DNA from: Butyricicoccus sp. OM04-18BH
GTDB taxonomy: Bacteria; Bacillota; Clostridia; Oscillospirales; Butyricicoccaceae
Direction: 5' to 3'
Assembly: GCF_003481705.1 (NCBI RefSeq)
Contig: NZ_QULN01000008.1
Span: 1 to 64,000 of the forward strand
DNA length: 64,000 bases
The notes under the pieces were generated by a model. That model was not told the DNA's origin. It saw only the letters and a program-made list of their open reading frames with translations, and made no database searches. Shown here one piece after another: positions 14,474 through 50,110 of the stretch; the first letter of the stretch is position 1, and every line of letters begins with the position of its first letter. Made by a program: the position numbers and the translations under genes.

Positions 14474-14478
14474 AATCT

Positions 14479-14556
14479 GTCGGAAAACTTCTTTTTTCCG
14501 ACAAGGTGCGGCTCTCAGCAAACGCTTTTTCATACGCGCTGCCGCGCGGCTGTCTT
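14479..14556 (+). repeat. Degenerate remnant of the structured intergenic repeat (family A)
   Basis: A short hairpin (TGTCGGAAAA with TTTTCCGACA) is followed by TTTTTCATACGCGCTGCCGC. The latter resembles the TTTCATGCGCGCCGCCGCGC module of the full element at 22974-23191. Only this end is recognisable, so assignment is tentative. Confidence 0.4.
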
Positions 14557-16116: not shown

Positions 16117-16314
16117 CGCCGCCCCCCCTCTCATTCGGTACGTCTATCTTACCACGGCAGGCGGGGCAGGTGATGCCGAAAACGGGAAGCGCGAAAAAGC
16201 AGAAAAAATTGCCCGAAGCCGCTTCACTTGTGAAGAGATGAAACGGCCTCGGACAAAGAGTAGTATGTAGGTAAGGTGTGGGCAAAAAGGGAAAGAGGAT
16301 AAAGCGGAAGAGGT

Positions 16315-16497
16315 CAGACTGTCGATGAAGCTCATTTCATGCAATCACAGCCGCCGCGCGGCAGTGCGCATGAAATAGAAATCGTGCAGCGATTTTTATG
16401 CTTCCGGAGGGAGATGGTTTCCGCATGGGAACTTTCGGACGACTTGTGTTCTGCGTAGTCAGAACACTGAGTGCCGGCGAAGCGTTAGTTTCGCGAT
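16315..16497 (-). repeat. Structured intergenic repeat, family A, copy 1
   Basis: Reading the minus strand, this copy matches the copy at 22974-23191 along most of its length. Shared segments are CGCGAAACTA, GTGTTCTGACT with CGCAGAACAC, AGTCGTCCGAAAGTTCCCAT, TCTCCCTCC, and CTATTTCATGCGC. Hairpin stems differ: here the stem before CTATTTC is AAATCG/CGATTT. The rest of the gene-free stretch (16135-16654) holds this copy and the terminator at 16502-16553; nothing else is apparent. Confidence 0.85.
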
Positions 16498-16501
16498 AAT
16501 C

Positions 16502-22951: not shown

Positions 22952-22973
22952 GCAGGGGAGAACGGGGCGGCAA

Positions 22974-23191
22974 AGACTGTCGCGAAACTATAGTTTCGCC
23001 GACAAGTGTGTTCTGACTTCGCAGAACACGAGTCGTCCGAAAGTTCCCATTCGGAAACTTTCTCCCTCCAGAAGTATAAAAACCGAGGTACACGCCCCCG
23101 GTTTTTATGCAATCACGAAGTGATTGCTATTTCATGCGCGCCGCCGCGCGACAGCAGCGACATCTCCCTAAATGAATTTCATTGACAGACT
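22974..23191 (+). repeat. Structured intergenic repeat, family A, copy 2 (most complete)
   Basis: The element begins AGACTGTC and ends GACAGACTG. Inside is a row of hairpins: CGAAACTATAGTTTCG, GTGTTCTG/CAGAACAC, AAAACCG/CGGTTTT, GCAATCAC/GTGATTGC and a GCGCGCCGCCGCGCG palindrome. The linkers between hairpins are conserved in copies 1 and 3. It starts 23 bp after the punA stop. A further hairpin GGGCGGCA/TGCCGCCC follows at 23194-23212, without a T-run. Confidence 0.85.
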
Positions 23192-23255
23192 GAGGGCGGC
23201 ATTCTGCCGCCCCAAATCCTTGAAAAATACATGGAAAAATTTTTTGAAAAAAGTG

Positions 23256-23284: not shown

Positions 23285-23319
23285 ATAAAAGCTGTCACGG
23301 AGAACGTGAGACGGCAAAT

Positions 23320-23396
23320 CGAGGTGTGGCTCAGCTTGGTAGAGCGCTTCGTTCGGGACGAAGAGGCCGCAGGTTCAAATCCTGTCACCTCGACCA
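23320..23396 (+). tRNA. tRNA-Pro (anticodon CGG)
   Basis: A 77-nt cloverleaf: acceptor CGAGGTG with CACCTCG, T-loop GTTCAAAT, anticodon stem CTTCG/CGAAG around the loop TTCGGGA. With U33 before it, the anticodon is CGG. Discriminator A and an encoded CCA end are present. Confidence 0.96.
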
Positions 23397-23502: not shown

Positions 23503-23537
23503 ATAAAAGTCGCTGCGAGATACGGCGACCATCATTT

Positions 23538-23614
23538 CGAGGTGTGGCTCAGCTTGGTAGAGCGCTTCGTTCGGGACGAAGAGGCCGCAGGTTCAAATCC
23601 TGTCACCTCGACCA
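23538..23614 (+). tRNA. tRNA-Pro (anticodon CGG), identical second copy
   Basis: The 77 bases are identical to the tRNA at 23320-23396, including the encoded CCA. The flanks differ, so the copies are not a very recent perfect duplication of the whole unit. Confidence 0.96.
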
Positions 23615-27085: not shown

Positions 27086-27111
27086 GGTTATCCCTCCTGA
27101 AAAAATGTGGA

Positions 27112-27221
27112 ACAGAGAAGGGACGACCCGGAGGGAGGGTTACTTACCCTGCGAAAGACGCAGGACGGCCGGGCTACCTACCGGCTCTGGTGCAGAATGC
27201 ACGTTGCGTTTTTATCTCTGT
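27112..27221 (-). ncRNA. Probable yjdF riboswitch
   Basis: On the minus strand, an outer helix CAGAGA/TCTCTG (27215-27220 with 27113-27118) closes a domain with three local hairpins. These are GTGCA/TGCAC, GCCGG-TAGGTAG-CCCGGC, and CCTGCG/CGCAGG. It ends about 25 nt before the yjdF start codon. Gene context makes a yjdF-type RNA likely; I cannot check the covariance model. Confidence 0.7.
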
Positions 27222-27230
27222 GTATATCTG

Positions 27231-31623: not shown

Positions 31624-31844
31624 GCAGTCTGCGGAAAAAGCGTTTTCCGGCGCATTCTTCGCGCGACAGCGCGCATTAAATAGAATTTGCGCAGCAAATT
31701 CATAAAAACCGGGGGCGTGTACCTCGGCTTTTATGCAAGGGAAGAAAAATGTGCCCGCAGGGCGCGGTTTTTCTTCAATATTCGCTCGAAAGCGTGGTTT
31801 CGAGCGAGAAACTGGAACAGTTTCATAGTTTCCCCTTCCCGGGC
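31624..31844 (-). repeat. Structured intergenic repeat, family A, copy 3
   Basis: Read on the minus strand it shares AAAACCGGGGGCGTGTACC with copy 2 (in complement), a hairpin-CTATTTAATGCGC module, and the GACTG end. Its hairpins have other sequences: GGAAAA/TTTTCC, GAATTTGC/GCAAATTC, GCTCGAAA/TTTCGAGC and GAAACTG/CAGTTTC. It fills the space between the fumarase-like gene and the deacetylase gene. Confidence 0.75.
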
Positions 31845-42462: not shown

Positions 42463-42535
42463 GAGCAACACCGCACAAGGAAAGCGGCGCTGTTTGCTCG
42501 CAAATCGCTTTTGTCCCGTTATGCGGTATTGCCTG
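42463..42535. repeat. Short copy of the MITE-like repeat (family B)
   Basis: The ends match the longer element at 46610-46776: GCAACACCGCA on the left, TTATGCGGTATTGCCT on the right. They share the inner TTTGCTCGCAAATCGCT. About 90 bp of the middle are missing. Confidence 0.8.
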
Positions 42536-42544
42536 AAAAAAAGT

Positions 42545-46609: not shown

Positions 46610-46776
46610 TTAAGGCAACACCGCATAATTAAAGCTGCGGTGCTTTGCGGAAATTTTTCACCCTGATTGCGTTGCGATTTCTTGCAATACGAAAGTATTG
46701 CTGCAAAACCGCGCCTTATCAGAGCGCAAAATTTGCTCGCAAATCGCTCTTGTCTAATTATGCGGTATTGCCTTAA
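46610..46776. repeat. MITE-like element with 22-bp terminal inverted repeats (family B)
   Basis: The left end TTAAGGCAACACCGCATAAT and the right end (46755-46776) are inverted repeats matching at 21 of 22 positions. Internal palindromes are GCAATACGAAAGTATTGC and TTTGCTCGCAAA. No coding capacity. The outermost TTAA on each side could be part of the ends or a duplicated target. It lies between the rpmF terminator and der. Confidence 0.85.
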
Positions 46777-46801
46777 ACTGACCTTGAGGGAGGGAAAACC
46801 T

Positions 46802-49825: not shown

Positions 49826-50079
49826 CTAAGGGGGACGCTGTCCCCCTTAGATACGCCCCCGGTTCCTTGCGAAACCGGGGGCGATACCCCCCTCTCGTCC
49901 GCACGGCGGACGAGGCCGCGCCGCCGCGGCGCGGGCAGCGGGATAAAAGTCCGGCAGAGCTGGACTTTTATGGGGAATTTTATGCGGCCTGCTGCGGCAG
50001 GCCTGTCCGCCCTCCTTGCCGAAGGCAAGTTTGGGTGGAAATAGCGCACGCTTTGCGTGCGCGGCGTCTGGGAGGGCGC
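49826..50079 (+). repeat. Array of eight consecutive hairpins (family A-related structured element)
   Basis: The gene-free stretch 49814-50290 holds, in order, the stems CTAAGGGGGAC (49826), GCCCCCGGTT (49855), CTCGTCCGC (49894), CCGCGCCG (49916), ATAAAAGTCC (49943), GGCCTGC (49986), CTTGCC (50015) and GCGCACGC (50044). Each is followed by its complement within a few bases. GGAAATAG before the last stem and GTCTGGGAGGG after it match the linkers of family A copies. A terminator follows. Confidence 0.8.
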
Positions 50080-50110
50080 AAGCACTCGGGGAAACTCGGG
50101 TGCTTTTTTT
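50080..50110 (+). terminator. Terminator at the end of the hairpin array
   Basis: GCACTCGGG pairs with CTCGGGTGC (two G-T pairs) on a GAAA tetraloop, then T7. Confidence 0.9.

What the first reader, a model, noticed from the sequence alone, without database searches (positions are those of the whole stretch)
22974..23191. Dispersed intergenic element with conserved linkers but interchangeable hairpin stems
Copies at 22974-23191, 16315-16497 (inverted) and 31624-31844 (inverted), plus the array at 49826-50110, share linkers such as CTATTTCATGCGC/GAAATAG and CTTCTGGAGGGAG. At the same place each has a different but self-complementary stem: GCAATCAC/GTGATTGC, AAATCG/CGATTT, GAATTTGC/GCAAATTC, GCGCACGC/GCGTGCGC. 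Compensatory replacement of whole stems implies that hairpin formation, not sequence, is kept, or that stems are exchanged as cassettes. No protein is encoded, so any mobility would be in trans. This is the strongest candidate here for an undescribed system. I know of no named family with this layout, but a search is needed.
Basis: partly seen in the sequence, partly recalled or inferred. Interest (0 to 1): 0.75.

Follow-up and report, generated by a model that had tools for sequence, protein, structure and literature searches.

The report
Hairpin-array repeats that duplicate terminators
Short non-coding repeats scattered through the genomes of a group of gut bacteria keep their loops and linkers but freely swap matched hairpin stems, and one branch of them inserts at gene terminators, copying the whole terminator hairpin.

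Summary
A (22974-23194), C (31844-31625, minus) and the weaker B (16500-16314, minus) belong to one repeat family; a fifth, internally deleted copy lies at 14477-14552. The window resembles Agathobaculum. The H4-H5-H6 part is found in 25 of 25 genomes of that genus. Stems covary strongly (97.9% of cells paired against 80.8% in shuffles; 20 of 28 pairs changed on both sides). No Rfam family reaches threshold.

Of 63 copies 22 lie between direct repeats, mostly terminator-like hairpins. A sister genome shows one empty site exactly: a 32-nt hairpin once, against twice around a 212-nt insert. A full-length IS1182-family element with similar ends has the same kind of duplication. So part of the family looks like a non-autonomous passenger of a hairpin-targeting transposase.

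Array D is a related second family, sense and 2-11 nt after a stop codon in 17 of 30 hits.

Why pairing is kept is unsolved: G.U and A.C cells are equally rare (42 and 37), so no single RNA strand is clearly favoured.

The parts
22974..23194 (+). Copy A: complete element downstream of a nucleoside phosphorylase gene and upstream of tRNA-Pro
   Evidence: R1 95.0 bits; not seen behind the same gene in 23 of 23 relatives' loci, 330 nt read in each
22982..22999 (+). A: hairpin H1 beside the IS1182-type left end (AGACTGTCGCGAAAC at 22974-22988)
   Evidence: alignment with other copies
23008..23029 (+). A: hairpin H2
23039..23062 (+). A: hairpin H3 with GTTCC..GAAAC loop type
23076..23108 (+). A: hairpin H4 (ATAAAAACCG..CGGTTTTTAT), covarying stem with conserved 7-nt loop and a mostly kept A.C mismatch
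23109..23127 (+). A: hairpin H5 (GCAATCAC-GAA-GTGATTGC), the most variable stem
23128..23136 (+). A: conserved linker TATTTCATG
23137..23150 (+). A: hairpin H6 (CGCGC..GCGCG)
23182..23193 (+). A: IS1182-type right end TTGACAGACTGA
   Evidence: compare IS right ends in L108 (CTCGACAGACTGA) and L119 (CTCGACAGGCTGA)
23194..23212 (+). A: terminator-like hairpin at the right border, presumed target-duplication copy
22964..22972 (+). A: GGGGCGGCA, presumed remaining half of the left target-duplication copy
   Evidence: 8-nt direct repeat
16314..16500 (-). Copy B, diverged; lies directly after a terminator-like hairpin; right end GACAGTCTGA
   Evidence: (28.9 bits)
31625..31844 (-). Copy C, with the other 5' half (CTCGCTCGAAACCACGCTTTCGAGCG, P1 type); right end AGACTG
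   Evidence: (91.9 bits)
14477..14552 (+). Fifth copy, internally deleted: H1-type hairpin plus H6, after a terminator-like hairpin behind an ATP synthase delta/epsilon-chain gene
   Evidence: 27.9 bits
49822..50085 (+). Array D: member of a second, related hairpin-array family, 9 nt after the stop codon of a glycerol-3-phosphate dehydrogenase gene

Best explanation
The finding is a family of modular, non-coding hairpin-array repeats of roughly 180-240 nt, old in Agathobaculum-like bacteria, in which loops and linkers are conserved in sequence and stems mainly in pairing. SHOWN in relatives: one branch, to which A belongs (and B and C by their right ends), carries IS1182-type ends and lies between two copies of a terminator-like hairpin, and one exact empty site shows that the hairpin was duplicated on insertion, so that both neighbours keep it. 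INFERRED: it is moved in trans by an IS1182-family transposase whose strand transfer at the two 5' feet of an extruded hairpin yields the duplication. SHOWN: stems change by compensation, with one-sided differences between near copies. INFERRED, and least sure: pairing is kept because the array acts as a folded nucleic acid just behind genes, a string of stable hairpins harmless to, perhaps protective of, transcripts reading in from either side, and copies that fold are the ones tolerated and passed on. The related D family, sitting sense just after stop codons in operons, is the form in which an RNA role is easiest to see.
For: Covariation: 46 copies, 28 pairs; D family, 21 copies, 43 pairs: 95.8% paired against 78.5%, 27 pairs changed on both sides, 141 such cells against 38.8. 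Insertion: G005 against G004, 212-nt element between two 32-nt copies of AAAAGCTGCTCAAAGGATTTTGAGCAGCTTTT, one copy in G004, flanks 598/600 and 594/600 identical. Direct repeats of 12 nt or more flank 22 of 63 copies against 25 of 3906 mispaired flanks; 14 of the 17 repeats of 18 nt or more contain a hairpin of at least 6 bp. Ends: with the stricter patterns both ends are found in 28 of 63 copies against 13 of 3000 random stretches, left end 40 of 63 against 132 of 3000, right end 35 of 63 against 168 of 3000. Matching autonomous element: L119:461-2033, ends TCAGTCTGTCGAAAAAG and TCAGCCTGTCGAGAAAC, transposase 403.5 bits against cut-off 270 of NF033551 IS1182, flanked on both sides by GCGGCAGAAAGGAACACCTTTCTGCCGC. 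In G004 an IS end GGTTCTTTGACAGTCTGA (L109) matches the GTTCTTTGACA end common among the repeats of G004 and G005, which differs from the TTTTTCGACA end common in G001. Divergent (promoter) contexts: 1 of 63 copies against 120 of 639 gaps of 50 nt or more. Stepwise compensation.
Against: No IS1182 transposase was found in G001 or G005 although both hold many copies and G005 a recent one: the enzyme may be lost, very different or not IS1182. 16 of 63 copies show neither end by the stricter patterns and some copies lie bare inside operons, so another route may exist. Over all copies G.U and A.C cells are equally frequent (42, 37), which does not favour the sense RNA; in the recent family raw cells are 105 G.U to 24 A.C, but as distinct pair states 12 to 11 and as private states 6 to 7, so most of that excess is one inherited state. 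The antisense strand of A folds better than the sense strand (-94.7 against -76.4 kcal/mol), and B folds only weakly better than shuffles (z -2.67). Private stem changes are not strongly depleted against linkers (0.18 per column against 0.26), so selection on settled copies looks weak. Only one exact filled/empty pair was made. Terminators are called by sequence alone; no transcript data.
Confidence: 0.72

Rival explanations
1. The constraint is on RNA: the arrays are 3'-end or intercistronic mRNA elements with a host role (processing, 3'-end protection, insulation of translation), and the mobile branch is a structured RNA that was captured between IS1182 ends.
For: D copies: of 30 hits 23 are sense in tandem contexts and 3 antisense, and 17 of the 23 start 2-11 nt after the stop codon. 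The same place in several species: after a ribosomal protein L23 gene in 5 genomes (two of them near-identical sisters), after an IF-2 gene in 4 (one by flank letters only), between an aminotransferase-V gene and a nifU-type gene in 3 (one member of each set named by Pfam). In sense tandem copies of the A family G.U exceeds A.C, 10 to 2. Loops and linkers conserved.
Against: Overall G.U equals A.C, and convergent copies lean the other way, 9 to 14; 12 of 33 tandem A-family copies are antisense; several D copies are orthologous, so the 23 are not independent; no expression data; no Rfam match.
Confidence: 0.35
2. The constraint is on DNA and on movement: hairpins in single-stranded or cruciform DNA are needed, or favoured, for transposition, so that only lineages with intact stems spread.
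For: No overall strand preference of wobble pairs; one-sided changes prevail between close copies and two-sided ones between lineages; related transposases target hairpins (PMC4923244 and PMC5678879, passages read).
Against: DDE transposases are thought to need only the ends (recalled); the IS in L119 has only 65 and 29 nt outside its gene, no room for an array; array copies without clear ends persist in orthologous places.
Confidence: 0.3
3. Pairing is kept by mutation, not selection: template switching in palindromes copies one arm onto the other (quasipalindrome correction).
For: Stem pairs are almost all Watson-Crick (3169 of 3294 cells); several stems differ as whole blocks.
Against: Near copies differ mostly by single-sided changes, 128 to 20 in pairwise counts that are not independent; the A.C mismatch inside H4 stays in 87 of 156 rows over the two alignments, some copies counted in both; linkers are better conserved than stems, which copying between arms does not explain.
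Confidence: 0.12
4. H4 and its neighbours are simply mobile bidirectional terminators, kept because they end transcripts.
For: H4 has AAAA before and TTTT after a G+C stem on both strands, with A and T columns nearly invariant; 27 of 63 copies lie between convergent genes against 109 of 639 gaps.
Against: The consensus scan does not call H4 a terminator in A; it calls H5. D-type and some A-type copies lie between genes of one direction such as L23 and the next gene, or lexA and recG. H6 and P1 have no T run.
Confidence: 0.2

Closest known systems
IS1272 / TnSha1 of the IS1182 family (PMC4923244: passages; PMC5678879: abstract, passages, first part of the Discussion)
   Same: Transposase of the IS1182 family; targets hairpins, several confirmed as transcription terminators, by structure and not by sequence
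   Different: There the hairpin is deleted and no target duplication is made; here the whole hairpin is duplicated, an outcome that PMC5678879 draws as pathway b of its model
Bacterial MITEs (review PMC10969869 seen in search listings only)
   Same: Short, non-coding, ends shared with a transposase-bearing IS, many copies
   Different: Interior is a conserved, covarying hairpin array that the IS in L119 does not have, and copies without clear IS ends exist too
REPINs / REP-RAYT (PMC3116915: passages)
   Same: High-copy intergenic hairpins; [quoted passage not shown]
   Different: Several different hairpins in fixed order with conserved linkers; Y1 transposase found in only 5 of 25 genomes that all hold the repeat
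Pneumococcal BOX / RUP / SPRITE (PMC3049150: passages)
   Same: Modular, folded, intergenic; trans mobilisation through ends shared with an IS was proposed
   Different: 'compensatory' and 'covari' do not occur in that text; no hairpin duplication in the passages read; sequences not compared here

Membership tests
MITE of the IS1182 family | terminal inverted repeats shared with an autonomous IS1182-family element | tested here: met
   element ends GAGACTGTCGAAAAA / TTTTTCGACAGACTGA against IS ends TCAGTCTGTCGAAAAAG / CTCGACAGGCTGA in L119; similar, not identical
MITE of the IS1182 family | target duplication of the same kind as the autonomous element | tested here: met
   32-nt hairpin for the element in G005, 28-nt hairpin for the IS in L119
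MITE of the IS1182 family | no protein-coding gene inside | tested here: met
   no ORF of 100 aa or more lies within copy A; shorter ones not looked at
MITE of the IS1182 family | transposase present in the same genome | tested here: inconclusive
   genes or fragments in 12 of 25 genus genomes; 9 of 25; none in G001 and G005 in either; the window's own genome is not held
MITE of the IS1182 family | moved in trans by that transposase | not testable with these tools
   needs a bench assay
REP / REPIN with RAYT | REP-associated Y1 transposase in the genome | tested here: not met
   5 of 25 genomes, while the repeat is in 25 of 25
Known RNA family (Rfam 15) | match above gathering score | tested here: not met
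   window: only two tRNA and yjdF; 6 loci; best over an element 19.4 bits against 69
BOX or ERIC repeats | sequence similarity to those families | not tested
   no models at hand; resemblance is by layout only
D as member of the A-C family | match to the A-C covariance model | tested here: inconclusive
   21.2 bits, E 0.0056 for 49937-50005

The most novel reading that the evidence does not exclude
A class of genetic element not yet described: hairpin arrays whose heritable identity lies in loops, linkers and pairing, with two families (A-C and D) matched in every Agathobaculum-type genome searched, one settled in core operons as a folded mRNA element and one captured between IS1182 ends and spread through terminators by hairpin-duplicating transposition. 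It would be a structured RNA (or ssDNA) turned transposon passenger.
Probability: 0.35. Interest if true: 0.85.

Novelty: new variant of a known kind. Interest (0 to 1): 0.66.

Why it matters
It supplies sequence evidence, with one exact empty site, for a transposition outcome that PMC5678879 only drew as a model: duplication of a whole target hairpin. Landing at a terminator and leaving it on both sides would let an element spread without breaking gene ends. It also gives a large natural data set (59 copies in 1.2 Mb of chosen stretches from three species; some copies orthologous) in which one can ask whether hairpins in mobile repeats are kept for RNA, for DNA or by mutation bias. Arrays behind the L23 and IF-2 genes raise a testable question about intercistronic RNA in core operons.

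Tried and rejected
RAYT/REP origin: Y1 transposase in 5 of 25 genomes only. Known RNA family: none. Phage link: a degenerate H4 pattern gives 0 exact matches in viral contigs. Instant stem exchange or arm copying as the main cause: not supported. Simple terminators: see rival. A solved relative of the transposase: none at E 0.01 by sequence. Literature: searches listed no description of this repeat or of terminator duplication by an IS1182-type MITE that I recognised from titles and abstract starts; two returned no paper; subscription papers are not covered. PMC2267715 (stem-loop families in bacterial genomes) was searched for five words and gave one passage of no use.

Rows dropped before counts: A1 uses 46 of 59 extracted copies (close duplicates and the insert-bearing L046 left out). 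One search counts 141 distinct of 171 rows, but its mismatch tally (156 rows) is deduplicated within each alignment only. A4 uses 21 of 30 D hits: 5 began too far inside the profile, 2 were not cut out by the pattern, and L171 and L198 with inserts were left out. D3 was left out of the D structure because its stems shift in the alignment. The 51 recent copies are distinct, near full-length ones. A5 was not counted. The end patterns were poor: the first missed real ends, the second has a right-end pattern that 2179 of 3000 random stretches also match; one search gives stricter patterns with that control, and only those end counts are used. The 20-kb stretches were chosen, not drawn at random, so copy numbers per genome are not estimated.

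Full report
WHAT WAS CHECKED. The three reported copies were read and compared. A and B share 107 nt at 85%, A and C 76 nt at 80%; profile search gives A-B 3e-28 and A-C 1.4e-12. Array D does not align with them by BLAST.

WHERE IT COMES FROM. No genome is held for the window. A degenerate linker pattern scanned over the species genomes hit 27 stretches: 11 in Agathobaculum desmolans, 9 in A. butyriciproducens and 7 single hits in unrelated taxa, not examined and presumably chance. The window is therefore taken as Agathobaculum-like, by the shared repeat and by 71-81% identity over one gene in 23 of 25 genomes of that genus.

HOW MANY. BLAST with A finds matches in 22 of 25 genus genomes. A covariance model of H4-H5-H6 (46 copies, 85 positions) matches 32 of 87 family genomes at E 1e-4, 25 of 25 in the genus and 7 of 62 outside it (at most 51 candidates scored per genome). 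Over the order 24 of 394 sampled genomes match at E 1e-5: 11 are genus members, one another family genome already seen, and 12 new ones have weak matches. In 1.2 Mb of chosen stretches from three species 59 copies were found: 36 in G001, 15 in G002, 8 in G005.

ANATOMY. Full copies read: left end GAGACTGTCG.., hairpin H1, then either H2 plus H3 (GTTCC..GAAAC loop) or P1 plus P2, then H4, H5, a linker like YTATTTNATG, H6, a spacer and the right end ..CGACAGACTGA. Modules differ between copies; some carry inserts at the foot or in the loop of H4.

PAIRING. On 46 copies 97.9% of cells pair against 80.8% in shuffles, 20 of 28 pairs change on both sides, 179 cells do so against 45.7, and sliding the partner by one to three columns drops pairing to 36.5-52.2%. 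Over 141 distinct rows the cells are 3169 Watson-Crick, 42 G.U, 37 A.C, 46 other. That equality says that no single RNA strand is favoured overall. Split by context, sense tandem copies show 10 G.U to 2 A.C, antisense 2 to 2, convergent 9 to 14, too few to decide. In the recent G004/G005 family the raw cells are 105 G.U to 24 A.C, but distinct states are 12 to 11 and private ones 6 to 7. A mismatch inside H4 is A.C in 87 rows, T.C in 20 and A-T in 37 of 156. Both strands of A fold better than every one of 200 shuffles; C has z -4.48, D z -8.91, B only z -2.67 with 3 of 200 shuffles as good.

TEMPO. Among 51 distinct recent copies of G004 and G005 pairs of copies with 0-9 differences show 128 one-sided and 20 two-sided stem changes, while pairs with 20-24 differences show 375 and 885 (pairwise counts, not independent). 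Two-sided change therefore seems to build up through one-sided steps. Private changes per column: stems 0.18, linkers 0.26, loops 0.33, tail 0.70. A different whole H4 is carried by 5 of the 51.

MOVEMENT. Copies are often flanked by direct repeats that are themselves terminator-like hairpins. Over 63 copies 22 have a direct repeat of at least 12 nt; left flanks paired with right flanks of other copies give 25 of 3906. Both ends are recognised by strict patterns in 28 of 63 copies against 13 of 3000 random stretches. The element in G005 at L170:13638-13849 lies between two copies of a 32-nt hairpin; G004 has that hairpin once, with 598/600 and 594/600 identical flanking bases. Copy A was not seen behind the phosphorylase gene in any of 23 relatives' loci, 330 nt read in each; by eye 21 of them show the tRNA-Pro next in the same direction.

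THE LIKELY ENZYME. A search for DDE_Tnp_1_6 and one with a fragment found that way led to L119:461-2033 in G046: 1573 bp, 492-aa transposase, IS1182 family by NCBIfam (403.5 bits, cut-off 270), ends like those of the repeats, and a 28-nt hairpin on both sides. G046 itself has no match to the repeat model. Partial IS copies in L108 and L109 end the same way next to terminator-like hairpins. G002 holds another full-length IS1182 gene (L107, 364.9 bits) whose ends (GGGACTGTCGCAC, GGGGCTGTCGCAC) are only partly like those of its repeats. Against all this, no such transposase was found in G001 or G005. Mobilisation in trans is thus inferred.

PLACE IN THE GENOME. With a simple codon-based gene caller of my own (85% coding), 1 of 63 copies lies between divergent genes against 120 of 639 gaps, 27 between convergent genes against 109 of 639, and 21 sense against 12 antisense between genes of one direction. 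The repeats sit behind genes. Some copies seem inherited in place: between lexA and recG (named by Pfam in L136), by eye, 4 of 25 loci hold a copy reaching H6, 1 an inverted one beside a P1 hairpin, 4 only P1-like remnants and 16 none.

ARRAY D. DNA search with D matches 25 of 25 genus genomes at E 0.01, at best 5.5e-43, but in several only by short pieces (G018: 25 nt, E 0.004). Its fuller copies share an order of hairpins with loops like GTTCC..GAAAC and CGGCARAGCYGG. On 21 copies 95.8% of cells pair against 78.5% in shuffles and 27 of 43 pairs change on both sides. Of 30 hits 23 lie sense in tandem contexts and 3 antisense; 17 of the 23 start 2-11 nt behind the stop codon. Several are the same place in different species: behind ribosomal protein L23 (5 genomes), IF-2 (4, one by flank letters only), between an aminotransferase-V and a nifU-type gene (3); another follows a ribosome recycling factor gene. 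In the L23 set stems differ between species while pairing mostly stays.

WHAT IS KNOWN. IS1272 and TnSha1 of the IS1182 family insert at hairpins, several confirmed as terminators, delete the hairpin and make no duplication (PMC4923244, passages; PMC5678879, abstract, passages, first part of the Discussion). [quoted passage not shown] REPINs show compensatory changes (PMC3116915, passages). BOX elements are modular and folded (PMC3049150, passages). I found no paper on this repeat in the searches listed under Tried and rejected.

VERDICT. A real, abundant repeat family with strong stem covariation; its mobile branch works like a MITE of an IS1182-type, hairpin-duplicating transposase. Why the stems are kept is the open part.

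Noticed in passing
window 14477-14552: Fifth, internally deleted copy (H1-type hairpin plus H6) after the ATP synthase delta/epsilon-chain gene.
   Followed up: partly
window 27103-27225, minus: azaaromatic (yjdF) riboswitch aptamer, 63 bits.
   Followed up: no
window 23319-23396 and 23537-23614: Two identical 78-nt stretches holding tRNA-Pro(CGG), 218 nt apart.
   Followed up: no
L223, L046, L005; perhaps L133: A small insert TAGCCCGTAGGCCTCTATCCTT..AATGAGAG in either orientation at the foot of H4, with something similar inside P2 of L133: perhaps a smaller mobile module.
   Followed up: no
L225 (G007, lexA-recG gap): An element in inverted orientation beside a P1 hairpin like that of relatives; possibly an insertion that used P1 as its hairpin target.
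   Followed up: no
window 42493-42538 and 46732-46777; L088: Another dispersed repeat (CTCGCAAATCGCTYTTGT..TTATGCGG..TT.CCT), 89% between the two window copies and seen again by eye in a relative.
   Followed up: no
G222:C35:49701-50143 and G187:C78:52594-53036: Three weak model matches each in tandem at 183-nt spacing in genomes outside the family.
   Followed up: no
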